This document shows positions 26,273 through 42,372 of a stretch of DNA of 64,000 bases, one piece after another. Under the pieces are notes generated by a model. It worked only from the letters and a program-made list of their open reading frames with translations. It was not told where the DNA came from and did no database searches. The number at the start of each line of letters is the position of its first letter. The first letter of the stretch is position 1. Source of the DNA: Conexibacter sp. SYSU D00693 (lineage in GTDB: Bacteria; Actinomycetota; Thermoleophilia; Solirubrobacterales; Solirubrobacteraceae); the NCBI RefSeq assembly GCF_017084525.1, contig NZ_CP070950.1, positions 1,736,001 to 1,800,000 of the forward strand, given 5' to 3'. Made by a program: the position numbers and the translations under genes.

Positions 26273-26764
26273 CTACGCGGCCGCCGCCAACCCCACCGGC
26301 TCGAGCGGAGCCTCGGCGTCGCGCGAGTGGCGCAGGAGCGTCCCCTCCTCGCCGACCTCGTAGGAGCCGACGCGCGCGAGCGGCGGGGAGTAGGCGTGGA
26401 TGGTCGTCGCCGGGCCGCCGCCGCCGTGACGGACGCGGTGGATCGCGGTGCGCGGGACGCTCACGGCGTCGCCGCGGCCGTAGCGCCGGATGACCGGGCC
26501 GCCGAGGGCGAAGCGCTCCTCGACGACGAGGCCCTCGACGACGGCGATCGCCGCGGCGGCGTCGTCGTGGTCGTGCCAGCCTGTGTCGTGGCCGTCCATC
26601 CAGCCGATGACGTAGACCTCGCAGCGCGCGTCGCGGTGCAGGAGCGCGTAGCTGCGCTCGGCCGGGTCGTGCGTGACGTGGGGGCGCCAGGCCGCGGCGT
26701 CGGCGGCGTGGGTGCGCACGAGCGCGTCGAGCTCGTCGCGGGTCAGGCTCAGGCGGGGATCCAT
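26273..26764 (-). CDS. Cysteine-dioxygenase-type (thiol dioxygenase) cupin
   Basis: 163 residues, a typical size for bacterial cysteine dioxygenase-like cupins. The iron site is visible as GWHDHDD (about 61-67, His-x-His) with the third His in RTAIHRVRH (about 108-113). Y-V-I-G-W and the HAYSPPL tail match the family. Members oxidise cysteine, 3-mercaptopropionate or related thiols to sulfinates. It overlaps the upstream amidohydrolase by 16 nt on the same strand, so the two are co-translated and probably share the operator upstream of the amidohydrolase. Confidence 0.83.
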   Translation of the reverse strand: MDPRLSLTRDELDALVRTHAADAAAWRPHVTHDPAERSYALLHRDARCEVYVIGWMDGHDTGWHDHDDAAAAIAVVEGLVVEERFALGGPVIRRYGRGDAVSVPRTAIHRVRHGGGGPATTIHAYSPPLARVGSYEVGEEGTLLRHSRDAEAPLEPVGLAAAA

Positions 26765-27752: not shown

Positions 27753-30599
27753 TCACCCCTCGAGCGGTGGGACCGGCGTGCCCACGGGCGGCCCGAGCGG
27801 GCGCACGGAGGCGTTGATCCACGCGCCGTCCGTGAACCACGAGCCCGTGTAGCGCATGCCGCCGGCCGATGGCGGGACGAGGTTCGTCGACAGGAACTGG
27901 CCCGCCAGGGCGAGCATCGCCGGCGACCCGACGCCCGGAGCCGAGGAGTGCCACGGGGCCAGCAGCGCGTCGGTGAAGACGTCCGGGTCGCGCAGCCGGT
28001 CGCGGATCGCCGAGCCCTCCAGGTCGCCCTTGAGCGCCGCGCGCAGCGCGAGACCCGTGACGTAGCCGCGCAGCCCGTCGAGCGACGGGCGCTCGCCCGG
28101 CCACAGGACCGGCAGCGTCCGCACGAACGCCAGCGCGTCGGCGGTCTGGGTCGAGACCTCGCTCACGCCCTGCAGGACGCCCAGGCGTCCCAGCGTCCGG
28201 AGGCGGTCGATCGTCCGCTCGGCCAGGACCCGCTCGCTCCCCAGGAACGGCGCGGGCGGGAACGTCCGCTCCGTCTTGCGGCCGAGGCGCTCGAGCGCGG
28301 TCAGCGCCGGATTACGTCCTGCCGGCGCGTCGAGGACGAGGCCCAGCGTCCGCCGCCGGTCGAGCAGGTGCTCGAGCTGCGCGTCGGTCTTGCCCGCCCA
28401 CCAGCGGTCGGGGATCGCCGCCGTGGCGACGCCGGTGCCCTCGAGCCCCGCCTCGAGCCCGGCCAGCAGCCGCCGGCCGATCGCGTCCTGGGCCACGGCG
28501 GTGCGCAGCGTCGCCACGCCCGGCGCCGCGGCGCCCGCGCCGAGCACGCGCTCCTTGAGGTACTGCGCCAGCGCGAAGCCCTGGGCGTACGGGTCGGCCG
28601 CGAGGCGGAAGACGCCCCCGCCCGCCAGCGGCTCGACCCCCGGGTCGCCGACGACCGCCGGGACGCCGGCGGCCTGGGCCTGGCGGATGCCGCCCGCGGC
28701 GCCCGCGCCGCAGCCGGCGACGGCGACGGGCCCGTGCGCGGCGAGCGCGGCCTTGGCGATGCGGGCCGACCGCGCGGGGTCGCCCCCGTCGTCGAGCGCG
28801 AGGGTCGCGAGCTTCGTGCCGTCGTCGACGCCGCCCTCGGCGTTCACGCGGCCGATCGCGACCTGCAGGCCCTGGACGTTCGCGCGGCAGCGCGCGGCGC
28901 CCGGGCCGCTGAGGTCGGCGAGGACCAGCAGCTCCTCCGGGTCGGCTCCCGGCGCGCGCGGGACGCCGACGGGCAGGCCGACCGGCGCCGCCGCGCGGCG
29001 GCCGTCGGCCGACACGTACGCGTACCACTGGCCCTCGGCCGGGAGGTCGACCGTCGTCGACCACGTCCCGCCCTCGCCGCGACGCAGCTCGACGTCCAGC
29101 TGCTGCGTCGAGCACGCGCAGTTCAGCCGCACCGTGACCGCGCGCGGCTCGCGTGCCGGCGGGCGGCCGACGACCGTCAGCGTGTTGGTCCCGGTGCGCC
29201 CCGGCGAGAGCGCGACCTGCGCCTCGGTGCCGCTGAGCAGCGCCGTCCCGAACGCCGGACCCGGCAGGAGCGTGCCCTCCTGTGCAGGCAGCGGACGCCC
29301 GCGGCCCTGCGAGAGGCCGCCGAGGACCGCCGCCAGCGCGACGACCGCGAGGACGCCGATGACCTCGAGGCGCAGCAGCCGCGGCCGCGGAGCCCCGGTG
29401 GCCCCGGCGTCCGTCGCCCGCGCCCGGCGCCACGCCACGAAGCCCGCCAGGGCCACGAGCGCGACGAGGACCGACTTGACGATGACGATGCGCCCGTAGT
29501 CCGACCAGCGCAGGAAGTACCAGCGGTCGACCTCGCGCACGGCGGCGAGGACACCGGTGACGACCGCGATGCCCAGCGACGTCGCGGCCAGCGGCGCGAA
29601 CGCGCGAGCGCCGGCGCCGAGCTTCGCCACGCCGGAGCGGGCGAGCAGCAGGAGCGCGAGCAGGCCGCCGAGCCACAGGCCTGCGGTCAGGACGTGCGCG
29701 GCCTGCGCGACGAGCTCGAGCGCCCCGACGTCGGCCAGCGCGTGGCCCGACAGCGCGTAGGTCAGCAGGACGCCGACGGCCAGGCCGGCGAACAGGCCGT
29801 CCCGCCGGCGCGTCGCCAGCCGCCCGGCGCTGAGCGCCAGCAGCAGCGAGCCCCCGACCACGACGGCGCCGCGCACGAGCTGCGCGCGCCCCGTGGACGA
29901 GTCGGCCAGCAGCCCCAGGTCGAGGCCGTCGCCGGCGCTCGTCGTCGCGCCGGCGAGGACGCCCTCGCTGGCGGCCAGGCCGACGAGGAGCCAGGCGGGC
30001 ACGAGCAGCGGCCGTGCGCGCTCGGCGAGGTCCTCGAGGGCGTCGCTGCCGCGGCGCCGCAGGGCGGCCAGCAGCGCGACGGCGCCGAGGAGGAAGGAGG
30101 CGGCGATGATGCCGAGCCAGTCGGCGACCACGTCCAGGACCGACTCGCCGGAGACGTCCTCGCCTCCGCGGCCGCCCGAGCTCGCGGCACCGAGGCGCTC
30201 GGCCCCGGGCGGGAGGGCGCCGTCCTTGCCGGCGACGCCGAAGCTGAAGGTGCCGCCCACGAGGTGGCCGTCGTCGCCGAGGACCTTCCAGCGGACGTCG
30301 TAGACGGCGGAGGCCAGCCGGCGCAGCGGGCGGACGGACAGGGCGGAGCCGCCGTCCTCGGCGCTGACCTTCGAGACGGGGACACGCCGGCCGCGCGGGC
30401 CGGTGACGACGACCTCGGAGCCGCGCGGGACGACGGGCTCGGCCAGCACGAGCCGGATGGCCTCCGGCGAGCGCGGCGTGATGAGGCCGGGCGACGGGGC
30501 CGCCTGGCGGAGGAGGGGATGCGCGACCGCGGCCGCCGGCCCGGTGCCCAGGAGGGCACCGAGCGCGACGGCCGCGACCACGAGGGTCCGGCGGAGCAC
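27753..30599 (-). CDS. CopC-CopD-periplasmic-binding-protein fusion
   Basis: 948 residues. A signal peptide (1-27) precedes a CopC domain (about 28-125) with a mature N-terminal His (AHPLL) and a second His in DDGHLVGGTFSFGV, the usual Cu(II) ligands. A CopD-like membrane domain follows (about 150-435, roughly eight helices, with YALSGHALADV and AAHVLTAGLWLGGLL). Next come a beta-rich segment (about 455-545, with CACS) and a type 1 periplasmic ligand-binding domain (about 555-945, beginning LADLSGPGAARCRANVQGLQVAIGRV). CopC-CopD fusions for copper uptake are known; a C-terminal PBP1/LivJ-like domain is not something I recognise from them. The GTG start lies 7 nt after the SBP56-like stop, so the two genes form one operon. 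The binding domain might sense or deliver a small organic ligand or a copper chelate. Confidence 0.82.
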   Translation of the reverse strand: MLRRTLVVAAVALGALLGTGPAAAVAHPLLRQAAPSPGLITPRSPEAIRLVLAEPVVPRGSEVVVTGPRGRRVPVSKVSAEDGGSALSVRPLRRLASAVYDVRWKVLGDDGHLVGGTFSFGVAGKDGALPPGAERLGAASSGGRGGEDVSGESVLDVVADWLGIIAASFLLGAVALLAALRRRGSDALEDLAERARPLLVPAWLLVGLAASEGVLAGATTSAGDGLDLGLLADSSTGRAQLVRGAVVVGGSLLLALSAGRLATRRRDGLFAGLAVGVLLTYALSGHALADVGALELVAQAAHVLTAGLWLGGLLALLLLARSGVAKLGAGARAFAPLAATSLGIAVVTGVLAAVREVDRWYFLRWSDYGRIVIVKSVLVALVALAGFVAWRRARATDAGATGAPRPRLLRLEVIGVLAVVALAAVLGGLSQGRGRPLPAQEGTLLPGPAFGTALLSGTEAQVALSPGRTGTNTLTVVGRPPAREPRAVTVRLNCACSTQQLDVELRRGEGGTWSTTVDLPAEGQWYAYVSADGRRAAAPVGLPVGVPRAPGADPEELLVLADLSGPGAARCRANVQGLQVAIGRVNAEGGVDDGTKLATLALDDGGDPARSARIAKAALAAHGPVAVAGCGAGAAGGIRQAQAAGVPAVVGDPGVEPLAGGGVFRLAADPYAQGFALAQYLKERVLGAGAAAPGVATLRTAVAQDAIGRRLLAGLEAGLEGTGVATAAIPDRWWAGKTDAQLEHLLDRRRTLGLVLDAPAGRNPALTALERLGRKTERTFPPAPFLGSERVLAERTIDRLRTLGRLGVLQGVSEVSTQTADALAFVRTLPVLWPGERPSLDGLRGYVTGLALRAALKGDLEGSAIRDRLRDPDVFTDALLAPWHSSAPGVGSPAMLALAGQFLSTNLVPPSAGGMRYTGSWFTDGAWINASVRPLGPPVGTPVPPLEG

Positions 30600-30606
30600 G
30601 AGGTGA

Positions 30607-32808
30607 TCAGCGCTTCGCCTTCGCGCGCGACCTGCTCTTCGCGCGGGACTTCGACTTGGCCTTGGCCTTGGCCTTGGCCTTGGACTTCGCCTTGGCCTTC
30701 GACGTCTTCTTCGACTTCTTGGCGGCCTTCTTCTTCGTCTTCCCGGCCGCCGCCTCACCGCGTGCCGCGAGCGGCTCGTCCGGCGCGCAGACGCCCGGCG
30801 GGCACACCCACACCATGGAGTGCGGCTTGTAGAAGCCGGCGTCCGGCGAACCGGGCCAGTTGCGACGGTTGAAGTTCACGCCCAGGGCGCCGGTCTTCTC
30901 ATCCCGGAAGTCCTGGTCGTAGCTGAGCTTCCCCTCAGGCGAGACGTCCACCGTGTAGAAGCGGTGGTCGCCGTCCACGCCCGTGCGCGAGACGAAGTAG
31001 TTCGAGAACGTCAGTCGCCACGGCACGCCGTTCTGGTCCACGGAGTGGTTGTCCAGGGCGCCCCAGTGCGGGCCGCCGGACGTGATGTCCTTGACCTTCA
31101 GGGCATCCACCAGCCGCGGGCAGTCCGAGACCTGCGCGCCCGTCGCCAGCTTGTTGAACAGCTTGATGCCCGTCAGGTTCAGGCGCTTGATGCCGCGGGA
31201 GAGGTCGCACTCGACCTCGCCGTCCTGGGCGCTCTCGATGGTCTTCGAGATGTCCAGGTCGTAGATGAGCTTGCTGGCGCCCTGGTCGAAGTAGTTGTCC
31301 GACGCGGGGTTGCGACCCTGGACCGACCGGAAGAACAGCCGGTTGTTCGGGGTCACCTGGTGCCAGGCGCCGCCGGCGCAGCCGGCGGGCTCGTCGAGGA
31401 ACTTCGAGGCGTCGTCACCCGAGACGTTGAGGGCGCTGAGGCCGTCGTTCCAGACCTGGACGATCTTGTTGGAGAAGTCGCCCTTGGCCTTGGTGATGTC
31501 CGGGATCAGGAAGACGCCGCCACCGCACATGGAGCCGGCGAAGAACGCCTTCGAGTCCAGGCCGCCCCGGTACTTCTTGGCGGCGTCGGGCCACGTCTTC
31601 GCGTTCTCCATGATCCCGTACTGCTCATGCGCGCGCTGGGCGGGCTCGAGCGGGCCGTTCGGGACCTTGGCGACGCCGGCCAGCTTGGGCTTGCTCGGGT
31701 TCGACAGGTCCCACGAGCGCACCGTCGGGCGGAAGGCGTACTTGTCGACCGTCTTGACGGGGTCGAGCACGATCTCGCGCGGCTCGGCGTAGTCGGAGGT
31801 CAGACCGGCCTTCACGTCCGGGCGGAACTGGATGCCGTGCGGGTTGGCGCAGGTGCCCAGCGGGCGGCCCTCACGGACCGAGCAGGGCTCCTTGATGCCA
31901 CCGGCGTTGCCCGTGAGGACGCCGCCGATGTTGCCGGCCTGCACCTCGGACTCCTTGACCAGGCCCTTGACGGGGTCCGGCTTGAACGTGATGAGCTGGC
32001 CCGGCGAGCCACCGAAGTTCGCCAGCGGGCCACCCATCAGCGTGAGGGTGAAGCGCCCGTTGTCGCCCTTCTCGTAGGCGTCGGCGATCGTGCCGCCCGG
32101 GTTCTGGAGCGGATCGATGATGTTCGTCAGCTTCAGGTTCGGCACGTCCTTCGGGTCCAGCACGAAGGTGGTGCCGAGGAAGAGGCTGCCGGCGACGATC
32201 GGGTCCCCGTCCTCCCACTGGTACTGCATGTGGTGCGCCTCGTTCTCGACGCCCCACGGCAGCGGCAGCTGCACGAAGTTGACGACCTTGCCGTAGTCCG
32301 GGTTCTCCGTGCCGTCGACGTCGAACTTGCGCTGGTCGATGACCTGCCAGCCGTCGAGGCCGGGGAGGAACTGCGGGTTGAGCAGGTCGGCGAGGCCCTG
32401 CGGGTTGACCGTCAGGTTCTGGACGAGCTTGCTCAGGACGTCGGCGTGGACGTCGGCGACGTTCTGCTTGGACGACCAGACGACGCTGTACTCCGGCTTG
32501 GCCCGCGGGTCGGGCTGCTTGCCCTTGCCCGCCTTGTAGGCCGCGACGGCGGCCTTCCACTCGGCCGTCGCCTTGTCCCGGCGGGCGATGACCTCCGGGC
32601 TCGTGTTGTTCTTGACCGTGTTGATGTCGAGCGCCCGAGAGAGGGTGTTCACCAGCCACTCCGGCTTGATGGGCAGGTCTCCCAGCCCGTCACCCCCGCT
32701 CTGGGCGGCGGCCTGCGTGCCGCCGAGGGCGAGCGCGCCGGCGGCCAGGAGCGCGGCCCCTGCCGCCCCCCAGAACCCCTTGCGCGCTCGCGTGCGCTGT
32801 CTGTGCAT
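30607..32808 (-). CDS. Secreted selenium-binding-protein/methanethiol-oxidase-like protein with basic tail
   Basis: 733 residues from ATG 32808, which has a clear ribosome binding site (GGGAGGA, 9 nt upstream). A signal peptide covers about residues 1-35. The body resembles the SBP56 beta-propeller family: ENEAHHMQYQW, FVLDPKDVPNLKLTNIIDP, NPHGIQFRP, TSDYAEPREI, GGAWHQVTP, LTFSNYF and YKPHSMVW line up in order with SBP56 segments. These include His positions used for copper in methanethiol oxidases. It is longer than the usual 430-460 residues and ends in a 40-residue Lys/Ala/Ser/Arg tail like a histone H1 tail. The downstream CopC-CopD fusion would suit copper supply. Assignment rests on my own alignment from memory; a generic LVIVD-type propeller is the alternative. 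Confidence 0.65.
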   Translation of the reverse strand: MHRQRTRARKGFWGAAGAALLAAGALALGGTQAAAQSGGDGLGDLPIKPEWLVNTLSRALDINTVKNNTSPEVIARRDKATAEWKAAVAAYKAGKGKQPDPRAKPEYSVVWSSKQNVADVHADVLSKLVQNLTVNPQGLADLLNPQFLPGLDGWQVIDQRKFDVDGTENPDYGKVVNFVQLPLPWGVENEAHHMQYQWEDGDPIVAGSLFLGTTFVLDPKDVPNLKLTNIIDPLQNPGGTIADAYEKGDNGRFTLTLMGGPLANFGGSPGQLITFKPDPVKGLVKESEVQAGNIGGVLTGNAGGIKEPCSVREGRPLGTCANPHGIQFRPDVKAGLTSDYAEPREIVLDPVKTVDKYAFRPTVRSWDLSNPSKPKLAGVAKVPNGPLEPAQRAHEQYGIMENAKTWPDAAKKYRGGLDSKAFFAGSMCGGGVFLIPDITKAKGDFSNKIVQVWNDGLSALNVSGDDASKFLDEPAGCAGGAWHQVTPNNRLFFRSVQGRNPASDNYFDQGASKLIYDLDISKTIESAQDGEVECDLSRGIKRLNLTGIKLFNKLATGAQVSDCPRLVDALKVKDITSGGPHWGALDNHSVDQNGVPWRLTFSNYFVSRTGVDGDHRFYTVDVSPEGKLSYDQDFRDEKTGALGVNFNRRNWPGSPDAGFYKPHSMVWVCPPGVCAPDEPLAARGEAAAGKTKKKAAKKSKKTSKAKAKSKAKAKAKAKSKSRAKSRSRAKAKR

Positions 32809-32878: not shown

Positions 32879-34162
32879 TTAGGGTCGCGCGCGCTGGAGC
32901 CGCGGGTAGCCGCCCCTGACGTGGGGCTGCGGGCTGAGCGCGTCGCGCGGGCCCGTGTAGGCGTTGGTCGCCATCCCCTGCGGCAGGCTCAGGGCCGTCG
33001 TCGGATCGGCCGTGATGAAGAACCGCGCCCAATTGCCCTTGGCGTCGCCGTTCTTGCCGAGCGCCGCCGTGTTGGCGAACCAGGCTGCGACGGTGTCCTT
33101 GCGGGCGGCGACGAAGCGGGCCACGGTCACGAGGTCGCCGAGGGCCGGCCCCAGGCGCTTCGTGGCGTCGTCGGCCGCCGGCAGCAGCGCGCGGAGGTCG
33201 CGCAGGGCCGGTTCGGCGGCCCGGCGCAGCGGCCGGGCGCGGCGCAGGACGACCTCGAGGTCGTCGGCGACGGGCGGCAGCTCGCCCAGCGCGGCGGCCA
33301 GCGCGGGCGCGGCGGCGCGCAGGTCGCGCACCGGGGCGCGCGCCTCGCGGATGAGCGGCGCCGCCGCGTCGAGCGCGCCGGTGGCCTGCTCGAGCAGGCC
33401 CGGCGCCGCGTGCGCGGTGGCGCGCAGCGCGCCGTCGCGCCGGGTGAGCGCGCGAAGGACGCGGTCGGCGTCGCGGACGAGCCCGCGCACGGCGTCGTCG
33501 CGGGCGGCGGCCTCCCCCACGACGGCGCGGCCGGCGCGCACCGCGGTGGAGATGTCGGCCTCCTGGCCGCGCAGCGCGCCCGTGAGGCGCCGCAGCGAGC
33601 CCGTGGCCTCGCGCAGGCGCCCCGCGGCGTCGGAGACCTGCGCCGCGGCGCGCGGCGACGCGGCCGCCTCACCGGCTCCCTCGACCGAGGCGACGAGGTC
33701 CGCGCGCGCCGGGCGGTCCAGGACGCGCAGCGCCTCGTCGAGCTCGACGGCCGGCAGCGTCGCGGAAGCCGGCAGGACGGCGTCGTCACCCAGCGCCGGC
33801 GCGGTGACCGGCCCGGGGTCCAGGTCGACGTAGGACTCCCCGAGCAGCGTCTTGGTGCCGATGCGCACCGTCGCGCCCCGGCGGACGGTGACCGGCTCGC
33901 CGTCGAGCTCCAGCCGGACGGTCGCCCGGTCGCCCTGGCGGTCGATCGACGAGACCGACCCGGCGCGCACGCCGCGCACGAGGACGTCGCCGCGCACCGC
34001 CAGGCCCTGGAGGTCGTCGACGGTCGCGGTGAGGTGCGGCGCGTCGTCGGGGACGAGGCCCGGGCCGCCGAAGCGGTCCGCCAGGACGGCCGTGACCGCG
34101 ACGACCACCACCGCGAAGACGGCGAGGGCCAGCACCCAGCCCGGGGCGACGCGGCGGTTCAC
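32879..34162 (-). CDS. Mce family protein 6 (MceF position)
   Basis: 427 residues, last gene of the Mce operon, GTG start overlapping the upstream stop (GTGA). One N-terminal membrane helix (about 9-27), an MCE domain (about 40-115: LTATVDDLQGLAVRGDVLVRGVRAGSV, ESYVDLDPG), then about 250 residues of Ala/Arg/Leu-rich helix that would form the periplasmic tube. A C-terminal Gly/Asn-rich part ends with NWARFFITADPTTA. Six Mce subunits form the conduit of actinobacterial lipid or sterol importers. Confidence 0.88.
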   Translation of the reverse strand: MNRRVAPGWVLALAVFAVVVVAVTAVLADRFGGPGLVPDDAPHLTATVDDLQGLAVRGDVLVRGVRAGSVSSIDRQGDRATVRLELDGEPVTVRRGATVRIGTKTLLGESYVDLDPGPVTAPALGDDAVLPASATLPAVELDEALRVLDRPARADLVASVEGAGEAAASPRAAAQVSDAAGRLREATGSLRRLTGALRGQEADISTAVRAGRAVVGEAAARDDAVRGLVRDADRVLRALTRRDGALRATAHAAPGLLEQATGALDAAAPLIREARAPVRDLRAAAPALAAALGELPPVADDLEVVLRRARPLRRAAEPALRDLRALLPAADDATKRLGPALGDLVTVARFVAARKDTVAAWFANTAALGKNGDAKGNWARFFITADPTTALSLPQGMATNAYTGPRDALSPQPHVRGGYPRLQRARP

Positions 34163-35547
34163 GGCGTCGCCCTCGGGGTCGGGGTCACGCCCGGCAGGCC
34201 GGGGACGACGTAGCGCACGAGGCAGGCGAGCTGGTTGCGGTCCTGGCAGGTGTGCAGCAGCGCGCGGACCGCGGCGGCGGCGACAGCGGCCCGCTTGGCG
34301 CCGGTGGCGCCGGGGAAGCCGAAGTTCGCGGGATCGAAGGCCTCGAAGAAGCCCAGGCCGCGCAGGACCGGGCCGTTGACGTCGTTGGTCGAGAAGATCC
34401 CGGTGAAGCGCTCACCGAGCAGGCCGATGCCGTCGCGGTTGCGGTCGATCTCCCGGACCAGCGACCCGGCGTTGCGGGTGGCGCCCCGCAGGCCCGAGGC
34501 GGTCGGGCCCACGTCCTCGACGGCGGCCCGGGCGTCGTGCAGCGGCGCGGCGCCGTCCTTGACCGTCGCGCGCACGTCGTCCAGGAGGCCGCGGGCGGCC
34601 GGGGTGGCGGCGCGTAGGGCGGCCAGCGCGCCGGGCAGGGCCCGCGCCGCGGGCTGCAGGCGCTGCAGTGCCGGCACCAGCGGGGTGGCGAGGGCCTGGA
34701 CCTCGTCGAGCGCCCCGCGCACCTCCCGGGTGGTGGCCGGCAGCGCGCGCAGCGTCGCCTCCAGGTCCTCCCCGCCGGCGGCGGTGACCGCCAGCGTGCG
34801 GCGCGCGGCACCCGTGGCGCGCTGGAGCTGCTCGCCGCGGCGGGCGGTGACCTGGGTCACCCGGTCCATCCGCCCGACGAGCCGCGTGAGCAGGGTGCGC
34901 CGCTCGCGCAGCTGGCCCGCGACCGCGGCGGCGGAGCGCGCTGCCGGGTCCAGCGCCTCGAGCGCCTGGCCGAGCTTCGTGCCCCGCGCGTCGCCGGCCG
35001 CGCCCGCGAGCTCGGAGACGAGGACCTGGACGTACGCGCGCGTGTCGGCGTCGAGGGTCGACAGGACCTCGTCGGCGGCGACGGCGCGGGCCGTGCGGTC
35101 CGGGCCGATGGTGGCTCCTTCGCGCAGGCCTGGCGCCGACGGCGGCCCGGAGGTCAGCGCGACCTCGAGGTCGTTGAGGGCCGAGCGCGGGCGCACCTCG
35201 GCCGTCGCCCCGGCGTGCAGGGCGTCGCGGGCGTCGTCGTCGAGGCGCAGACGCACGACGGTGCGCCCGTCGCGCACGTGGACGGCCTCGACCTCGCCGG
35301 CCTCGACGCCCGCCAGGGTGACCTTGGCGCGGTCGCTCTCCCCCAGGCCGCCGGCGTCCGTGAAGACGGCCTCGACGTGGAACGCGCTCTGGAACGGCAG
35401 CCGCCAACCGCTGGCCCCCAGCAGGAGCGCGACGACGGCGACGGCGGCCAGGAGCTGCGCGGCGAGGACGGCGCGGCCGAAGCGCGCGCGGCGCCCGGCG
35501 ACGGCCCCGCCGTGGTGGTGGCGCGACGTGGTGGCCCGGCGGCTCAC
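34159..35547 (-). CDS. Mce family protein 5 (MceE position)
   Basis: 462 residues, GTG start in a GTGA overlap. A His/Arg-rich cytosolic leader (TSRHHHGG) and one membrane helix (about 32-48) precede the MCE domain (about 55-135: FHVEAVFTDAGGLGESDRAKVTLAGVEAGEV, LNDLEVALTSG) and a long helical region. Near the C-terminus a Cys pair (LLHTCQDRNQLACLVRY) could form a disulfide. In mycobacteria the fifth protein is often a lipoprotein; no lipobox is present here. Confidence 0.88.
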   Translation of the reverse strand: MSRRATTSRHHHGGAVAGRRARFGRAVLAAQLLAAVAVVALLLGASGWRLPFQSAFHVEAVFTDAGGLGESDRAKVTLAGVEAGEVEAVHVRDGRTVVRLRLDDDARDALHAGATAEVRPRSALNDLEVALTSGPPSAPGLREGATIGPDRTARAVAADEVLSTLDADTRAYVQVLVSELAGAAGDARGTKLGQALEALDPAARSAAAVAGQLRERRTLLTRLVGRMDRVTQVTARRGEQLQRATGAARRTLAVTAAGGEDLEATLRALPATTREVRGALDEVQALATPLVPALQRLQPAARALPGALAALRAATPAARGLLDDVRATVKDGAAPLHDARAAVEDVGPTASGLRGATRNAGSLVREIDRNRDGIGLLGERFTGIFSTNDVNGPVLRGLGFFEAFDPANFGFPGATGAKRAAVAAAAVRALLHTCQDRNQLACLVRYVVPGLPGVTPTPRATP

Positions 35548-36851
35548 GGCGTGCAGCTCCCCGCCTTGGCCAGCTGGTCGCCGAGCCCGGGCGCGAGCTT
35601 GCGGATCGGACCGCACGGCGGCAGGGGGATGCCGATGCCCGTCAGGAAGCGGATGCCGAAGCGCATGACGTGACCCGTGCCGGCGCTCGCGCCCGGCTCG
35701 CCGGGGCGCACGAACGGCCGGGACGCCCCGCCGCCGCCGGCGAAGAGGTTCAGGAACGCGCGGAACGCCGGCACCTCGAGCACCGGCGTGTCCTTGGCCA
35801 GCGCCGGCAGCAGCGTCTCGTCGAGCGTCTCGAGCGTCGGGTCGACGTCGCGCAGCAGCCCGCGCGTCGGCGCGGCGGCGCCGCGGGCGGCGACGAGCGC
35901 GCGGTCCGCGTCGCGGACGACGGGCCGCGCCTCGCGTAGGACCGGGGCGGCCTCGCGCAGCAGCGGGCGGGCGTCGCGCAGGGCGGCCGGCAGCGCGCGG
36001 GCGGCGGGCCGCAGGTCCTCGGCCAGCGGCCGGGCCGCGGCGAGCGTGCGGTCCAGCGCGGCACCGCCGGACTGCAGCGCGCGGGCGGTCGGGGCGAGCT
36101 CGCGCAGGCTGGCGCGCAGCGGCGCGCCGGCGCCGGCGTCCAGCGCCCGGGCCGTGCGGGAGGCACCACGCAGCGCCGGGGCCAGGTCGGCCTGGGCGCC
36201 GGCCAGGGCCGCCGCGGTCCGCGAGAAGCCGTCGACCGCGCCGCGCAGCGCCGAGCGCTCGCGCTGCGACGCCGCCGGGCCGCGGACCGCGCGGGCGCTG
36301 CGGGCGACGTCGCGCAGCAGGCCGGGCGCCGTGGCCAGCGTGCGGTCCAGCGCGTCGGCCGGCTCCCGCTCGAGCGCGCCCGCCAGCCCGGCGGTCACCT
36401 CCTGCAGCGCCTCACGCGTCGGGCGGTCGGCCAGGCGCAGGACGCGGTCCATCGACACCGCGGCCGCGGTCTGCGCGCGCGGGATCTCGCGGTCGCCCAG
36501 CGCGGGCGCCGACGGCGAGCCCGGGTCCAGGTCGGCGTAGGCCGTGCCCTCGAAGGCCAGGCGCGGGCGCAGCACGACGCGCGCGTCCTCGTGCACGGTC
36601 GGCGCCTCGGCGTCCAGCTCGAGCTCCAGGACGGCGTCGTCACCGCGCCGCTCGGAGCCGGCGATGCGCCCCACGGGCGTGCCGGCGACCTGCACCTCGG
36701 CGCCCACGACGCCCACCTGCGAGACGTCGTCGACCACCGCGCGCACGGTCGTCGTGTCGGCGAACGGGTTGGGCCGCTGCCAGGCGAGCAGCACGCCGCC
36801 GAGCAGGACGAGCGCGACGAGCGCGCCGCGGAGGGAGCGACGGTCGATCAC
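35544..36851 (-). CDS. Mce family protein 4 (MceD position)
   Basis: 435 residues, GTG start in a GTGA overlap. Membrane helix about 8-24, MCE domain about 35-115 (VRAVVDDVSQVGVVGAEVQVAGTPVGRI, TAYADLDPGSPS), extended helical region, and a C-terminal tail with two Cys (LPPCGPI and AKAGSCTP) that may be disulfide-linked. The repeating Ala/Arg helix heptads match those of the other Mce subunits encoded here. Confidence 0.88.
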   Translation of the reverse strand: MIDRRSLRGALVALVLLGGVLLAWQRPNPFADTTTVRAVVDDVSQVGVVGAEVQVAGTPVGRIAGSERRGDDAVLELELDAEAPTVHEDARVVLRPRLAFEGTAYADLDPGSPSAPALGDREIPRAQTAAAVSMDRVLRLADRPTREALQEVTAGLAGALEREPADALDRTLATAPGLLRDVARSARAVRGPAASQRERSALRGAVDGFSRTAAALAGAQADLAPALRGASRTARALDAGAGAPLRASLRELAPTARALQSGGAALDRTLAAARPLAEDLRPAARALPAALRDARPLLREAAPVLREARPVVRDADRALVAARGAAAPTRGLLRDVDPTLETLDETLLPALAKDTPVLEVPAFRAFLNLFAGGGGASRPFVRPGEPGASAGTGHVMRFGIRFLTGIGIPLPPCGPIRKLAPGLGDQLAKAGSCTP

Positions 36852-38107
36852 GGGCACCGCTCCGCCTGCTTGAGGGCCCCGCCCGGCTGGGGGTACGGGT
36901 CGCGCGCCCGGGCGCAGCTGAGGACCATCGAGAAGCGCACGGCGCGGGCGCCCTTCGCCTGGCCCTCGGCGAACGCGAAGCCGCCCCACGTCGTGAAGCC
37001 CTTCGGCGCGAGGACGAGCTCCTCGCGGTAGGGCGCGAGGTGCGCGGCCAGCTCGTCGAGCGGGTTCGTCAGCGGCGCGAGGAGGTTCGCGGGGTCGTCG
37101 AGGTCGCGGGCCAGCGGCCGAGCGGCGAGCAGGACGGGACGGGCGGCGCGGCCGGTGCGGGCGAGCTCGTCGAGCGCGGGCGCGCGGTCCAGGGCGCGGC
37201 GCAGCGGCGGCAGGGCCGTGTCGAGCCGGGCGACGGCGGGGCGCAGCTCCGCGGCGGCGCTGCCGGCGTCGGCCAGCAGGGCGCGGGCCTGTGGGGCGAC
37301 GCGGTCGACCGCCGCCTGCGCGGGCGGCAGCGCGCGCAGCAGGCGCCGGACGTCGGCCGGGGCGAGCGCGTCGAGCGTGCGCCGGGCGCCGGTGACCGCG
37401 CCGTCCAGCGGCCCGTCGCCGAACGCCGCGGCCGTCGTCCCGAGGTCCTTGGTCAGGCCGGCGAGGACGCCGGGCTCCGGGCGCATCGCGGCGGCCAGCG
37501 GCCGCGCGTCGCGCGACAGCGGGCCGAGGTCGTCGATGGCGGCGCCGAGGTCGTCGCCGCGGCCCGCCAGGCCCGAGCCGAAGCCGCGCAGCGCCCGGTG
37601 GGCGGCTTTGCGGGCCGGCGGGTCGAAGGCCTCGACGACGTCGGTGAGCGCGGTGCCGGCCGTCGCCGGGGCATCGAGCTGCGCGCCGCTGGGCAGCGGG
37701 TCGCGCGCGTCGCCGGGGTCGACGTCGACGGTCACGGCTCCCGCGAGGCCGCGCAGGCGCACGTCGGCGCTCGCGTCGCGGCCCACCGGGCCGTCGTCGA
37801 GGTCGAGGGCGAGCACCGCGCCGCCGTCGCGGCCGGGCCGGACCTCGCGCACCTCGCCCGCGCGCTGGCCGGCGATGCGCACCTCGTCGCCGTCCTTGAG
37901 CGCGGGCGCGCCCGCGGGGGTGCGGACCTCGACGCGGTAGGGCGAGCTCAGCGGGCCGCCGTCGATGGCGACGGTCGACAGCACGGCGACGGCCGCCGTC
38001 ACGGCGAGGACGACGAGGCCCAGGACGACGAACCGGCGCTCGTCGCGCGGGGTGAGCTCGCCGTCGAGGACGGCGCGCGAGCGGCGGCTGGCGCGGACGC
38101 GGCTCAT
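36848..38107 (-). CDS. Mce family protein 3 (MceC position)
   Basis: 419 residues, ATG start in an ATGA overlap. A 25-residue charged leader, membrane helix about 28-48, MCE domain about 55-130 (YRVEVRTPAGAPALKDGDEVRIAGQRAGEV, VTVDVDPGDARD), helical region, and C-terminal FTTWGGFAFAEG with a Cys pair (LSCARARDPYPQPG, AERCP). It is membrane-anchored, with the bulk periplasmic. Confidence 0.88.
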   Translation of the reverse strand: MSRVRASRRSRAVLDGELTPRDERRFVVLGLVVLAVTAAVAVLSTVAIDGGPLSSPYRVEVRTPAGAPALKDGDEVRIAGQRAGEVREVRPGRDGGAVLALDLDDGPVGRDASADVRLRGLAGAVTVDVDPGDARDPLPSGAQLDAPATAGTALTDVVEAFDPPARKAAHRALRGFGSGLAGRGDDLGAAIDDLGPLSRDARPLAAAMRPEPGVLAGLTKDLGTTAAAFGDGPLDGAVTGARRTLDALAPADVRRLLRALPPAQAAVDRVAPQARALLADAGSAAAELRPAVARLDTALPPLRRALDRAPALDELARTGRAARPVLLAARPLARDLDDPANLLAPLTNPLDELAAHLAPYREELVLAPKGFTTWGGFAFAEGQAKGARAVRFSMVLSCARARDPYPQPGGALKQAERCP

Positions 38108-39546
38108 GGGCCCAGGAGGAGGTCGAGGAGGCGGTCGACCGGTGCCTTGACGGCGTCGGTGACCCGCTTGAGCGGTTCGGTCGCCCGCTTGACCGGCTCG
38201 GTGACCGGCTTGACCGGCTCGGTGACCTTCGTGACGGCGTCCTTCACCGACGGCGCCGGCTTCCTGGCGGGCGCCTGGGGCTTCGTGGCGCCGCGCCGGG
38301 TCGTGGGGAGGCCGTCGACGCCGACGAGCGCCCCCGGGACCTTCGCCAAGCACCCCGGCGAGACCGGCACGCCGAAGGCCTCGCACGAGAAGACCGCGGC
38401 GCCGCGCCAGTAGCCGCGGCGCGGGTCGGCCGCCGGGTCCAGCGGCTGGCTGCCCGGCTCGGCGCCCTGGTCGGCGAAGTTCACGAAGAAGCCCTGGCTG
38501 ATCGCGGGGCCGGCGGGCTCGAGCGCCTCGAGGAAGGCGTCGAGGTCCGGCGTGGCGGCGCGCAGGGTGCGCAGGCCGTCGCGCAGCCCGGCGGCGGCGC
38601 CCGAGCCGTCGCGCAGGACGGAGCGCAGCGCGCGCAGCGTGTCGCGCAGGTCGCCGGCCGCGGGGCGCAGGCGCTCGAGCGCCGGGTCGAGCTCGCGTGC
38701 GACGCCGGCGACGGCGCCGGCCTGGTCGCGCAGGTCCTCGGCGACGGGGCGGGCCTCCTTCGCCGTGCCGCGCAGCGTGGCGGACGTCGTGCGCAGCTGC
38801 GTCAGGGTCCCGGGCAGGCCGTCCAGCGCCGTGCGCAGGTCGGCGCGGCGGGCGTCGGTCGCCGCCAGCGTGCGGTCGAGCCCGCGCAGCGCGCCGTCGA
38901 GGTCGCCGCGGCGTGCGTCCAGGCGCCCCGCCGCCCGGTCGGCGCCCGCGACGAGCTCGCCCAGGGCGGCGTTCTGGCTGGACAGCTCCCGCAGCGTCCC
39001 GTCGGCGGCGTCGAGCGCCTGGCGCACGTCGGCGATCGTCCGCGCCAGGCTCGTGCCGCGGCCCGCCAGCGCGCGGCCACCGGCGACCAGGAGCGCCTGG
39101 AGCCCGGCCCGGCCCTGCGGGTCCAGCACCCCGAGGACCTCGTCCAGGCGCGGGGCGCTCGTGGCGCGCGCGACGCCGATGGACCCGCGCAGCGGCGCCG
39201 CCGCGCGGCCCGGGTCGAGGTCCAGGACGACGTCGCCGAGCAGGTCGACGGGCCGCACGACGACGGCGGCATCGGCCCGCAGCCCCGGCAGCCCGTCGTG
39301 CAGCGCGAGCGTCGCCTTCGCGGTCCCGTCGGGGGCCAGCGACAGGTCGCGCACGCGGCCGGCGGGCGCCCCGCCGACGCGGACGTCGGCGCCCTCGAGC
39401 AGGCCGCGGGCGTCGCGCAGGTGGACGACGACCTCCGGGCCGCCCCCGCCGCCCAGGCGGTTGGCGACCACGACGACGGCCACGACGAGCGCCGCGAGCA
39501 CGAGCAGGCCGGCGGCCCAGCCGCGCGGCGTGGCCTTCACGTTCAC
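38104..39546 (-). CDS. Mce family protein 2 (MceB position)
   Basis: 480 residues, GTG start in a GTGA overlap. Membrane helix about 10-28, MCE domain about 35-110 (EVVVHLRDARGLLEGADVRVGGAPAGRV, DVVLDLDPG), helical region, then FFVNFADQG and a conserved Cys pair (FSCEAFG, PGCLAKVPG). The last 60 residues carry repeats of the type K-x-T-E-P-x-K (VTEPVKPVTEPVKRATEPLK), an extended basic tail the other subunits lack. It may contact the cell envelope. Confidence 0.88.
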   Translation of the reverse strand: MNVKATPRGWAAGLLVLAALVVAVVVVANRLGGGGGPEVVVHLRDARGLLEGADVRVGGAPAGRVRDLSLAPDGTAKATLALHDGLPGLRADAAVVVRPVDLLGDVVLDLDPGRAAAPLRGSIGVARATSAPRLDEVLGVLDPQGRAGLQALLVAGGRALAGRGTSLARTIADVRQALDAADGTLRELSSQNAALGELVAGADRAAGRLDARRGDLDGALRGLDRTLAATDARRADLRTALDGLPGTLTQLRTTSATLRGTAKEARPVAEDLRDQAGAVAGVARELDPALERLRPAAGDLRDTLRALRSVLRDGSGAAAGLRDGLRTLRAATPDLDAFLEALEPAGPAISQGFFVNFADQGAEPGSQPLDPAADPRRGYWRGAAVFSCEAFGVPVSPGCLAKVPGALVGVDGLPTTRRGATKPQAPARKPAPSVKDAVTKVTEPVKPVTEPVKRATEPLKRVTDAVKAPVDRLLDLLLGP

Positions 39547-40799
39547 GGCGTCGCCTCCGCCTGCGGGGCCAGCGTCGTGCGCCAGCTCTCCCACGGCTCG
39601 CCCTCGAGCACGCCCGGGGTGCGGATGAACGGCGCCTCGAGCTGGCCCGCGCCGGTGTCGGATGGCCCGATCTCGTTGAGGGCGGCCGGCGGGAAGATGA
39701 GCGAGACGCGGGCGCCATGGCCGTTGGCGTCGTAGTTCGACGTGAAGTCGGCCCAGTTGGCGAAGAACGAGAACGCGTCGGGCAGGCGCACGCGCGTCTC
39801 GGCGAGGATGGGCCCGCCCGCGTCGAGCACCCGGTCGGCGCGCCGGGCGACCGGCTCGGCTTCGCGCAGCAGCGGGCGCAGGGCGCGCAGCGCGCCGGGC
39901 GCGGTGCCCGTGACGCGACGGACGTCGCGCAGCGCGGGCGCCCCCTCGTCCAGCGCGGTGCGCAGCTCGCCGGCGGTCGACGGCAGCTGGCGGGCACCGG
40001 GCTGCAGCTCGCGGGCCAGGGCGGTGAGCGTCGGGGCGTCGCGGCGCAGCCGGGCGAGGGCCTGGCGGGGTGCGCGCAGGCCGGCGGGCAGCGCCTGCAC
40101 GGCGGCGGCAACGTCCTCCTGCTGGGCGGCAGCGTCGCCCAGCACCGCGGCGAGGTCGTCGATGGCGGCGCCCGTCGCACCGGGGTCGCGCTCCAGCGCG
40201 GCGGCGACCGTGGCGGAGCTGCGCACGAGGCGGCGCAGGGCGGCGCCGTCGGCGGCCACGTCGCCCGCCGCCAGCCCCACCTGCTGCAGCGCGGTGCCGG
40301 CGCGGCGCAGGGCGATCGCGCCGTCGGCGCCCCGCTCGGCGGTCGCGCGGCGCAGCCCGTCGAGCAGCCTGCCGGCGTTGCGCCGCGTGGCGGGGTCGAG
40401 CGTCGCGAGGACGTCCTCGACCTCGACGGGCTGGTCGGTCTGCGCCCGGCCGAGCACGGCACCGTCCTCGAGCGCCGGGCCGTCGCCGCCGTGCAGGTCG
40501 ACGTAGCGGTTGCTCTCGCCGCTGAGCGACTGCAGGCGCAGGTCGGCGACGGTCCCGCGGCGCACGCGGAAGCCGCGGTCCAGCGCGAGCGTCACGCGAG
40601 GCCGTCCACGCTCCAGCCGGATCTCCTCGACCGACCCGACCGGCTTGCCGCCCGCGCGGACCTCGGCGCCGCGGACCAGCCCAGGTGCCGCGTCGAAGAC
40701 CGCGTCGACGCGCTGGACGTCGCCGTCCCCGCGCGCCACGAGCACCGCGACCACGACGGCGACGACGAGCGCCACCCCGGCTGCCAGCCGCCCGGTCAT
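39543..40799 (-). CDS. Mce family protein 1 (MceA position)
   Basis: 418 residues, ATG start overlapping the permease stop (ATGA). Membrane helix about 4-22, MCE domain about 28-110 (RVDAVFDAAPGLVRGAEVRAGGKPVGSV, NRYVDLHGG), long Ala/Arg/Leu helix, and a C-terminal aromatic patch FSFFANWADFTSNYDANGHG followed by PPAALNE. It is the first of six Mce subunits, so it most likely contacts the permease pair directly. Confidence 0.88.
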   Translation of the reverse strand: MTGRLAAGVALVVAVVVAVLVARGDGDVQRVDAVFDAAPGLVRGAEVRAGGKPVGSVEEIRLERGRPRVTLALDRGFRVRRGTVADLRLQSLSGESNRYVDLHGGDGPALEDGAVLGRAQTDQPVEVEDVLATLDPATRRNAGRLLDGLRRATAERGADGAIALRRAGTALQQVGLAAGDVAADGAALRRLVRSSATVAAALERDPGATGAAIDDLAAVLGDAAAQQEDVAAAVQALPAGLRAPRQALARLRRDAPTLTALARELQPGARQLPSTAGELRTALDEGAPALRDVRRVTGTAPGALRALRPLLREAEPVARRADRVLDAGGPILAETRVRLPDAFSFFANWADFTSNYDANGHGARVSLIFPPAALNEIGPSDTGAGQLEAPFIRTPGVLEGEPWESWRTTLAPQAEATP

Positions 40800-41608
40800 C
40801 CCAGCGGCAGGCGCGGGTTGGCGCCCCAGAAGACGAGCGTCCCCACCATCGAGATGGCGGTGACGCCGACGATGTTCACGGCCATCGACCGCGCGGTCGC
40901 GGTTCCGACCTCCACGGGTCCACCCCGCACGCCGTAGCCGTAGTACAGCGAGACGAGCAGGACGAAGGCGGCGATGACCAGCCCCTTCACGCCGCTGAAG
41001 ACGAGGTCCCACCCGTCCTGGAAGGCGAGGAACTTGTCGATCCACGTGCCGGGCGAGACGTCCCCGAAGCGCACGACCGACATGAGGTAGGCGGCGGCGT
41101 AGGAGCCGGCGATGCTCAGCGCGTAGGCGACCGGCAGGACGATCGCGCAGGCCAGCATCCGGGTCCCCGCGAGGTAGGCCAGCGAGCGCACGCCCATCGA
41201 CTCGAGCGCGTCGACCTCCTCCTGCACCCGCATCGCGCCGAGCTCGGCGACGAAGCCGCAGCCGACCTTCGCGGCCAGGATGTAGCCGAAGACGAACGGG
41301 ACGACCTCGCGCAGCGTGCACCACGCGCTGAAGCCGCCGGCGATCGGGTCGAACCCGAAGGAGCGCGCGAGCGCCGTGGACTCCAGGCCGCACGAGCCGC
41401 CGGCCAGGAAGGCCAGGCCGACGATGACCGCCACGGAGCCCGCGGCGATGAGCCCCGCCTGGCGCAGCACCTCGGCGCCGTAGGGGCGCACGTGGCGCAG
41501 CTCGCCGCCCAGCGCCCAGGCGAAGGAGACGAGCTCGCTGAGCAGCGGCAGCGGCGAGACGGCCGGCTTGCGGAGGTTGCGCTGGGCGACGGCCTTCGCG
41601 GTCCTCAT
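40796..41608 (-). CDS. MlaE/YrbE-type ABC permease 2
   Basis: 270 residues, ATG start in an ATGA overlap with permease 1. About five to six membrane helices. The MlaE coupling region contains VAELGAMRVQEEVDALESMGV, with the conserved E-x(2)-A-L-x-x-M-G-V motif that contacts the ATPase, and the end carries NIVGVTAISMVGTLVFWG. With permease 1 it forms the inner-membrane part of the Mce importer. No MlaF/MceG-type ATPase is encoded nearby, as is usual for actinobacterial mce operons served by one distant ATPase. Confidence 0.9.
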   Translation of the reverse strand: MRTAKAVAQRNLRKPAVSPLPLLSELVSFAWALGGELRHVRPYGAEVLRQAGLIAAGSVAVIVGLAFLAGGSCGLESTALARSFGFDPIAGGFSAWCTLREVVPFVFGYILAAKVGCGFVAELGAMRVQEEVDALESMGVRSLAYLAGTRMLACAIVLPVAYALSIAGSYAAAYLMSVVRFGDVSPGTWIDKFLAFQDGWDLVFSGVKGLVIAAFVLLVSLYYGYGVRGGPVEVGTATARSMAVNIVGVTAISMVGTLVFWGANPRLPLG

Positions 41609-42372
41609 CGCAGGACGTTCACCCCCGGGAACTCCGCGAGGAACCACTGCGTGTAGAGCAGGTTCACCACCGAGATCGCGACGAGGCAGCCGACGACGGC
41701 GCGGTTGACCGCGCGGCCCACGCCCTCGGCCCCGCCCGTGGCGGTCAGGCCGTAGAAGCCGCAGATCACGCCGATGAGCGCGCCGAAGATCCCGACCTTG
41801 ACGATGCTCGCCACGAGGTCGAGCGCCGTCGTGTTGCGGAAGAACGAGTCGACGAACGCGCCCGAGCCGCCGTCCAGCACGCCGACCGACGCGACGTAGC
41901 CGCCCGCGACGCCGAAGACAAGCGCGACGACGTCGAGCAGCATCATCATCAGCACCAGCGCGAGGACCCGCGGCGCCACGATCGCGGCCACCGGGTCGAC
42001 CCCGAGGGTGCGCAGCGCGTCGAGCTCGCCCCGGACCCGGCGCGCGCCGAGCTCCGCGACGATCGTCGTCCCCACGACGCCGGCGACGACCGTCCCGGTG
42101 ACGAACGTCCCGAACTCGCGGACGATCGCCACCACCATGAAGCCCCCGGCGCGGTCGACCGAGCCGAAGGTCGCCAGGAAGCCGCCGGCCTGGAGGCCCG
42201 GACCGGCGAAGCCCCAGGCCGCGACGGACAGCGCGATGGGCAGCGCGGCGACCTTCAGGATGAAGACGCAGTGCAGCAGCAGCTCCCGGCGCCACACCGC
42301 GGGCGAGCCCGAGAGGGCGCGCAGCACCGACCCGGAGAGGGACAGCATCCCGCCGAGGCGGGCGATGGGCAT
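41605..42372 (-). CDS. MlaE/YrbE-type ABC permease 1
   Basis: 255 residues from ATG 42372; a TTG fifteen bases upstream is the alternative. Membrane helices and the coupling motif VAELGARRVRGELDALRTLGVDP are clear, as are VREFGTFVTGTVVAGVVGT and the C-terminal NRAVVGCLVAISVVNLLYTQW. It is the first gene of the operon. The promoter region holds TAGTAT (42404-42399) inside the operator site. No ribosome binding site is obvious before the ATG. Confidence 0.9.
   Translation of the reverse strand: MPIARLGGMLSLSGSVLRALSGSPAVWRRELLLHCVFILKVAALPIALSVAAWGFAGPGLQAGGFLATFGSVDRAGGFMVVAIVREFGTFVTGTVVAGVVGTTIVAELGARRVRGELDALRTLGVDPVAAIVAPRVLALVLMMMLLDVVALVFGVAGGYVASVGVLDGGSGAFVDSFFRNTTALDLVASIVKVGIFGALIGVICGFYGLTATGGAEGVGRAVNRAVVGCLVAISVVNLLYTQWFLAEFPGVNVLR

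What the first reader, a model, noticed from the sequence alone, without database searches (positions are those of the whole stretch)
27753..30599. CopC-CopD fused to a type 1 periplasmic ligand-binding domain
A single 948-residue protein runs from a signal peptide through copper-binding CopC, an eight-helix CopD-like channel, a beta domain and a LivJ/PBP1-like binding domain. CopC-CopD fusions are known; adding a substrate-binding domain would tie copper import to recognition of a small molecule, perhaps a copper chelate or an organic signal.
Basis: partly seen in the sequence, partly recalled or inferred. Interest (0 to 1): 0.65.

Follow-up and report, generated by a model that had tools for sequence, protein, structure and literature searches.

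The report
Copper protein fused to binding domain
The fused membrane protein is real and conserved in soil actinobacteria, and it always sits next to a secreted enzyme distantly related to copper-dependent thiol oxidases, so it most likely supplies that enzyme with copper rather than importing copper in response to a signal molecule.

Summary
One 948-residue reading frame, on the minus strand (30599 to 27753), runs from a signal peptide through CopC, eight membrane helices of CopD type, a beta domain and a type 1 periplasmic-binding (PBP1) domain. PBP1 is a Pfam match and the predicted fold matches LivJ at Z 27.9. Seven full-length orthologs from two families of the order show the fusion is no sequencing error.

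The context points away from "copper import on recognising a small molecule". In 10 of 10 contigs that cover both genes, the fusion directly follows a secreted protein, here called UP. UP is a distant relative of the SBP56/methanethiol oxidase superfamily (profile match 97.7%, column-shuffled controls at most 1.3%) that Pfam does not recognise. A UP relative in another family lies beside a PpoB2 copper chaperone. On Streptomyces plasmids, UP relatives precede a protein holding only the beta domain and a reduced PBP1, mostly inside sulfonate/sulfate assimilation clusters. A third conserved neighbour is one particular MCE importer, a single clade (bootstrap 99-100) among up to ten per genome.

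Best reading: a dedicated copper-handling and docking partner of a probable organosulfur-processing copper enzyme. The UP fold, its copper content, its substrate and any PBP1 ligand are not shown.

The parts
27753..30599 (-). FUS: CopC-CopD-beta-PBP1 fusion, 948 aa, GTG start
   Evidence: ORF, Pfam, AF2 model, seven full-length orthologs including this one
30234..30521 (-). CopC domain, residues 27-122; invariant H27 directly after the signal peptide, and D110-G-H112 (Cu(II) His-brace pattern of class C0-1)
   Evidence: Pfam CopC; invariant columns
29310..30140 (-). CopD-type membrane domain, residues 154-430, eight helices; invariant H286 and H302
   Evidence: AF2 secondary structure, Pfam/NCBIfam CopD, invariant columns
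28965..29267 (-). Beta domain (FixH/YtkA-like), residues 445-545, with a CxC at C494/C496 in most orthologs
   Evidence: AF2, weak FixH match, alignment, cysteine list
27789..28943 (-). PBP1 (LivJ-type) domain, residues 553-937, with invariant C571 and C630 near the N-lobe mouth
   Evidence: Peripla_BP_6; Foldseek and VIA-align; invariant columns; cysteines absent in four ordinary PBP1s
30607..32808 (-). UP: secreted SBP56-superfamily-like protein, 733 aa from ATG 32808 (756 aa from ATG 32877), no Pfam hit of its own
   Evidence: profile match to SBP56
32230..32235 (-). UP H215-H216 (756-aa numbering), aligned with the HH metal motif of SBP56/MTO
   Evidence: Invariant from here to Streptomyces; aligned by hhalign
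31066..31068 (-). UP H604 (GGPH motif), invariant
30820..30822 (-). UP H686 (KPHS motif), invariant; likely counterpart of the C-terminal His of SBP56
   Evidence: the equivalence to SBP56 is by position, not by a significant C-terminal alignment
32879..40799 (-). Six genes of an MCE operon; the two nearest UP carry MlaD domains (32879-34162, 34159-35547), the others by gene call and position
   Evidence: Pfam MlaD, gene calls
40796..42372 (-). Two MlaE-type permeases of the same MCE operon
   Evidence: Pfam MlaE E 1e-48 and 8e-51; members of the UP-linked clade

Best explanation
FUS is a membrane-anchored copper-handling protein of the YcnJ type (CopC-CopD-YtkA/FixH-like) with an added extracytoplasmic PBP1 domain. 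It is the dedicated partner of the secreted SBP56-superfamily protein (UP) encoded just upstream. Proposed steps: CopC takes up Cu(II) through its N-terminal His brace; copper passes through or along the CopD/beta part; the beta-PBP1 arm docks on UP so that copper is loaded into UP's His-rich site. UP then oxidises or cleaves an organosulfur or other hydrophobic compound, and the dedicated MCE importer takes up substrate or product. Shown: the architecture, the conserved gene pair, the copper-ligand pattern in CopC, the distant UP-SBP56 homology, the dedicated MCE clade, the link of UP homologs to sulfur genes. Inferred: copper in UP, the delivery from FUS to UP, the docking role of PBP1, the substrate class.
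For: UP and FUS are adjacent, same strand and order, in 10 of 10 contigs covering both, from two families. UP and FUS protein distances correlate (Pearson 0.94, partly shared ancestry). UP matches the SBP56 profile: 97.7% / E 2.5e-12 over the whole length, 96.5% in the first build, against at most 1.3% for reversed or shuffled controls of that first build; HH motifs align. Its more distant relatives hit Pfam SBP56 directly, below cut-off (E 2e-5 to 3e-3). SBP56 enzymes MtoX and SELENBP1 are Cu-dependent thiol oxidases, and mtoX sits in an operon with the copper chaperone SCO1/SenC (PMC5739008; PMC10362175). The UP homolog in G670 sits beside PpoB2 (PF09948 E 6e-51); PpoB2 delivers copper specifically to the tyrosinase of its own operon (PMC2855505). 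In Streptomyces plasmids the UP homolog is followed, start overlapping stop, by a two-helix protein with the beta domain and a reduced PBP1 (93%, E 3e-7; controls at most 0.6%), both cysteines kept. The host keeps a separate ordinary CopC-CopD next to DUF1775, so FUS is probably not its general copper importer. YcnJ needs its CopC and CopD copper sites, and its YtkA domain helps load cytochrome oxidase (PMC13344008).
Against: No copper binding, transfer or enzymatic activity is shown for any of these proteins. UP lacks the HxxH motif that binds copper in SELENBP1, so its metal site differs and could hold another metal. The AF2 model of UP failed (pLDDT 35), so its propeller fold is unconfirmed. 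The Streptomyces pairs have no CopC-CopD in the partner, so copper is not visibly part of every pair. Docking by PBP1 has no direct support.
Confidence: 0.55

Rival explanations
1. One reading: the PBP1 domain binds a small molecule (organic ligand, thiol or copper chelate) and gates or feeds copper uptake through CopC-CopD.
For: Complete LivJ-like PBP1 fold predicted, with the domain present in all seven full-length orthologs; N-lobe as conserved as CopC (mean pairwise identity 0.51 against 0.49).
Against: C-lobe less conserved (0.38); the Streptomyces partner keeps the cysteines but has lost most of the rest of the PBP1; no ligand-specific pocket signature was identified; no LivHMGF-type ABC genes were seen in the stretch examined.
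Confidence: 0.2
2. The PBP1 domain itself binds copper: invariant C571 and C630, with the CxC of the beta domain, form Cu(I) sites of a relay to UP.
For: C571 and C630 are invariant from Solirubrobacterales to Streptomyces and absent in four ordinary PBP1s; the protein has only four cysteines, all in these two pairs.
Against: A structural disulfide explains the same pattern; the CxC is lost in L037 and L042.
Confidence: 0.13
3. FUS is a second general copper importer; its position beside UP and the MCE operon is only inherited gene order.
For: CopC-CopD proteins are proposed copper importers with genetic support (PMC12362106), and gene order can persist by descent.
Against: The MCE operon lies in different orientations around the pair while the UP-FUS pair stays intact; a canonical CopC-CopD plus DUF1775 is elsewhere in the genome; the beta-PBP1/UP pairing recurs in Streptomyces without CopC-CopD.
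Confidence: 0.12

Closest known systems
YcnJ of Bacillus subtilis (CopC-CopD-YtkA copper importer)
   Same: Order CopC, CopD, beta domain; His-brace CopC residues; membrane topology
   Different: Adds a PBP1 domain; beta domain only weakly recognised as FixH/YtkA; no DUF1775 (YcnI) or YcnK neighbour, but UP instead
MtoX / SELENBP1 (SBP56 family, Cu-dependent methanethiol oxidase) with SCO1/SenC and MauG
   Same: Secreted (MtoX), HH metal motif, operon with a copper-handling protein; UP is distantly homologous
   Different: UP is far below the Pfam cut-off, larger, lacks HxxH, and is paired with CopC-CopD-PBP1 rather than SCO1 or MauG
PpoB1-PpoB2 (tyrosinase with its own copper chaperone, Marinomonas)
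   Same: Principle of one operon, one copper enzyme, one dedicated membrane copper protein; PpoB2 homolog beside a UP relative in G670
   Different: Unrelated enzyme and, for FUS, an unrelated copper protein
LivJ/LivK/AmiC type periplasmic-binding proteins (Peripla_BP_6)
   Same: Fold (Z 27.9 to LivJ)
   Different: Tethered to a copper membrane protein, invariant C571/C630 pair, no ABC permease genes of the LIV type seen nearby

Membership tests
CopC | Match over the Pfam cut-off | tested here: met
   52.8 bits against 23.3; also over in all six orthologs scanned
CopC | N-terminal His of the mature protein and Asp/His of the Cu(II) site | tested here: met
   H27, D110 and H112 invariant; signal peptidase cleavage before H27 is inferred
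CopC | Copper binding | not testable with these tools
   -
CopD | Match over the Pfam cut-off | tested here: inconclusive
   29.1 bits against 32.1 here; five of six orthologs pass, L036 just misses at 31.5; NCBIfam CopD E 1.6e-11, below its cut-off
CopD | Eight membrane helices with conserved His | tested here: met
   Eight helices between 154 and 429; H286 and H302 invariant
YcnJ-type CopC-CopD-YtkA | C-terminal YtkA domain | tested here: inconclusive
   Beta domain predicted; only weak FixH matches, E 0.03 and 0.004
YcnJ-type CopC-CopD-YtkA | Neighbouring DUF1775 (YcnI) | tested here: not met
   DUF1775 lies beside the genome's other CopC-CopD, not here
Type 1 periplasmic-binding protein (Peripla_BP_6) | Sequence match and fold | tested here: met
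   62.4 bits against 31.7; Z 27.9 to LivJ 4gnr
Type 1 periplasmic-binding protein (Peripla_BP_6) | Ligand binding in the cleft | not testable with these tools
   -
ABC-transporter substrate-binding protein | LIV-type permease and ATPase genes alongside | tested here: not met
   None among the genes scanned at 26-42 kb of the window; neighbours are MCE, UP, an amidohydrolase-like gene without Pfam match, CDO; the rest of the genome was not searched
SBP56 / methanethiol oxidase (for UP) | Match over the Pfam cut-off | tested here: not met
   No hit for the window protein; distant UP homologs 16.9-23.9 bits against 34; no PF05694 match in the genome
SBP56 / methanethiol oxidase (for UP) | Distant homology by profile comparison | tested here: met
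   97.7%, E 2.5e-12, colinear; first build 96.5% against controls at most 1.3%
SBP56 / methanethiol oxidase (for UP) | HH metal motif | tested here: met
   H215-H216 invariant and aligned with SBP56 HH
SBP56 / methanethiol oxidase (for UP) | HxxH metal motif | tested here: not met
   SBP56 H136/H139 have no counterpart in UP
SBP56 / methanethiol oxidase (for UP) | Seven-bladed propeller fold | tested here: inconclusive
   AF2 model of UP at pLDDT 35 is not usable

The most novel reading that the evidence does not exclude
An undescribed extracytoplasmic three-part system: a secreted copper enzyme of a new SBP56-superfamily branch that attacks a hydrophobic organosulfur compound, a CopC-CopD-beta-PBP1 protein that loads it with copper on contact, and a dedicated MCE importer for the substrate or product, with a CopCD-less version in sulfonate/sulfate assimilation clusters on Streptomyces plasmids.
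Probability: 0.3. Interest if true: 0.78.

Novelty: new variant of a known kind. Interest (0 to 1): 0.62.

Why it matters
How copper reaches individual extracytoplasmic enzymes is largely unknown; only a few enzyme-specific delivery proteins (SCO, PCuAC, PpoB2) are described. A CopC-CopD protein tied by gene order to one secreted enzyme would show that this family does more than bulk import. It would also give an unannotated branch of the thiol-oxidase superfamily a copper source and a physiological setting (sulfur), and hand a specific cargo question to one orthologous group of MCE importers.

Tried and rejected
Sequencing error or frameshift joining two genes: rejected by seven full-length orthologs. 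Plus-strand reading frame at the same coordinates: shadow ORF, rejected. UP as an ordinary SBP56: rejected on the Pfam cut-off and the missing HxxH. Fold of UP: the AF2 model failed, and a profile search of PDB sequences gave only two chance-level hits. Separate alignment of UP's C-terminal 200 residues to SBP56: not significant, so the H686 equivalence is by position. Fusion on plasmids: only isolated CopC matches. Wider spread of the fusion: C-terminal half searched in 399 genomes of the class and found only in the same order; the genome contigs pattern scan gave two MAG loci that appear to be the same as two of the G genomes (contig lengths 17217 and 4605). UP in the phylum sample: only G670 beyond the order as a strong hit. 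SCO1 exists in most of these genomes but no hit lies at the locus. The thiol dioxygenase and the amidohydrolase-like gene downstream are not conserved beside FUS, so they were left out of the system. The first call of the order search for UP failed for technical reasons and was repeated. Papers: in the open-access library searched I found no description of a CopC-CopD-PBP1 protein or of this gene pair; that is not proof of absence.

Full report
What is there. The finding's coordinates hold a single 948-codon frame on the minus strand (30599 to 27753, GTG start). The plus-strand frame at the same place is a shadow. Pfam finds CopC at 27-122, CopD at 332-426 (slightly under its cut-off), a weak FixH-like beta domain at 459-533 and Peripla_BP_6 at 559-882. 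An AlphaFold2 model built on 11 orthologous sequences (pLDDT 74, pTM 0.62) shows a CopC beta sandwich, eight helices, a second beta domain and a two-lobed alpha/beta domain. Foldseek and VIA-align place the last one firmly among LivJ/LivK/AmiC proteins (Z 27.9 to 4gnr over 553-937).

Conservation of the fusion. A search of 232 genomes of the order found the fusion in 11, seven of them full length (39-53% identity to the window protein for the other six), the rest cut by contig ends. One full-length copy (G170) is in another family of the order. A search of 399 genomes of the class with the C-terminal half found no further fusion. CopC keeps H27, D110 and H112, the pattern of a C0-1 type Cu(II) His brace as described for YcnJ (PMC12362106). 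The membrane domain keeps H286 and H302. The PBP1 N-lobe is as conserved as CopC (mean pairwise identity 0.51 and 0.49), its C-lobe less so (0.38). The protein's only four cysteines form two pairs: C494/C496 in the beta domain (lost in two orthologs) and C571/C630 in the PBP1 N-lobe, invariant and absent in four ordinary PBP1s compared.

The constant partner. Directly upstream, 7 bases from the fusion's start, lies UP (30607-32808), a secreted protein with no Pfam hit. In all 10 contigs that cover both genes UP precedes the fusion, same strand, with short gaps. The remaining cases are cut by contig ends (G054, G018) or hold only a UP remnant (G118). UP is better conserved than the fusion (61-76% against 39-53% identity for full-length copies), and the pairwise distances of the two proteins run in parallel (Pearson 0.94), which shared descent alone could also give.

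What UP is. NCBIfam gave a first hint, a weak match to methanethiol oxidase (E 0.035). Real SBP56 proteins from related genomes were aligned and compared with the UP profile: 96.5%, E 7e-10, against 0.1-1.3% for one reversed and ten column-shuffled controls. With more distant UP relatives added, the match covers the whole length colinearly at 97.7%, E 2.5e-12. The HH of UP (215-216) aligns with the HH of SBP56. Four histidines (215, 216, 604, 686) are invariant from this window to Streptomyces. UP is still not an SBP56 member: it misses the Pfam cut-off and lacks the HxxH that binds copper in SELENBP1 (PMC10362175). The AF2 model of UP failed, so its fold is inferred from the sequence comparison only.

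Two outside comparisons. First, a UP relative in G670, another family of the phylum, hits Pfam SBP56 at E 0.003 and lies directly downstream of a PpoB2 copper-chaperone gene (E 6e-51). PpoB2 is known to supply copper to the one enzyme of its operon (PMC2855505). Second, six Streptomyces plasmid records carry UP relatives at 32% identity, and those tested also hit SBP56 below cut-off. In the five opened, UP is followed directly, with start and stop overlapping, by a hypothetical protein (392-437 residues in the three read here). Those three have two N-terminal helices and match the beta domain and the beginning of PBP1 of the fusion (93%, E 3e-7; controls at most 0.6%), keep both PBP1 cysteines, but lack CopC, CopD and much of PBP1. 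In three of the five plasmids the pair sits between PAPS reductase and sulfite reductase in a sulfate/sulfonate assimilation cluster, in a fourth next to cysD, in the fifth without sulfur genes nearby. So UP with a beta-PBP1 partner is the wider unit, and CopC-CopD is what this order carries attached to it.

A third conserved neighbour. An MCE operon lies upstream in the same direction here, and divergent, convergent or downstream in other genomes. Ten of the 11 genomes hold several MCE permease pairs, up to about ten; the one with no MCE nearby (G016) has no MlaE gene at all. In trees of 38 permeases from nine genomes the UP-linked ones, from seven genomes and two families, form one exclusive clade (FastTree support 0.92 and 0.95, ultrafast bootstrap 99 and 100). 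In G113 a second MCE cluster that also lies near is outside this clade. For three further genomes (G117, G119, G054) only Mce proteins, not permeases, were close enough to see. The association with one orthologous MCE system, in changing orientation, suggests a functional tie.

How it most likely works. The host already has an ordinary CopC-CopD beside DUF1775, so the fusion is probably not the bulk copper importer. The best-supported model is a dedicated copper-handling protein: CopC binds Cu(II), the membrane and beta domains pass it on, and the beta-PBP1 arm holds UP at the membrane for metal loading, in the way SCO1/SenC is thought to serve MtoX (PMC5739008) and as the YtkA domain of YcnJ helps oxidase assembly (PMC13344008). 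Copper in UP, the transfer, the docking and the substrate are inferred. A ligand-sensing PBP1 remains possible in the order that has the full domain, but the reduced Streptomyces version argues that ligand binding is not the core role. The substrate class (organosulfur) rests on the SBP56 relationship and the Streptomyces gene clusters; the MCE link would fit a hydrophobic substrate or product, which is conjecture.

Novelty. CopC-CopD fusions, PBP1 domains, SBP56 enzymes with copper chaperones and MCE importers are each known. The fusion with PBP1, the UP family and their constant association were not found in the open-access library searched. I rate it a new variant of a known kind, with a lower-probability reading as an undescribed three-part system.

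Noticed in passing
window 26273-26764 (-): A thiol-dioxygenase family gene (CDO_I, E 4.7e-15) lies two genes downstream of the fusion; fits a sulfur theme but is not conserved beside the pair in other genomes.
   Followed up: partly
window 30607-30720 (-): UP ends in a Lys/Ala/Ser-rich low-complexity tail (KAKAKAKAKSKSRAKSRSRAKAKR); G119 has a similar one, other orthologs have a different C-terminal extension. Possibly cell-surface binding.
   Followed up: no
L089:3349-3525 (-), G018: A fragment resembling residues 872-937 of the fusion lies upstream of a UP gene that is cut by the contig end; looks like a remnant of a second copy.
   Followed up: no
L090:2581-2739 (+), G118: A short UP-like stretch (53 residues, 51% identity) with no intact gene: probable remnant.
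   Followed up: no
L046:11269-13472 (-), G170: UP of G170 is spread over two reading frames near its N-terminus; real frameshift or assembly error.
   Followed up: no
window 22055-25864 (+): Two cupin-like proteins followed by two ArsA/ParA-like ATPases in one run of closely spaced genes (names from reading the sequence, not from a family search).
   Followed up: no
L092, L100, L101 (Streptomyces plasmids): Nearly the same plasmid-borne sulfonate/sulfate assimilation cluster with two unannotated genes (UP homolog and beta-PBP1 partner) between PAPS reductase and sulfite reductase.
   Followed up: partly
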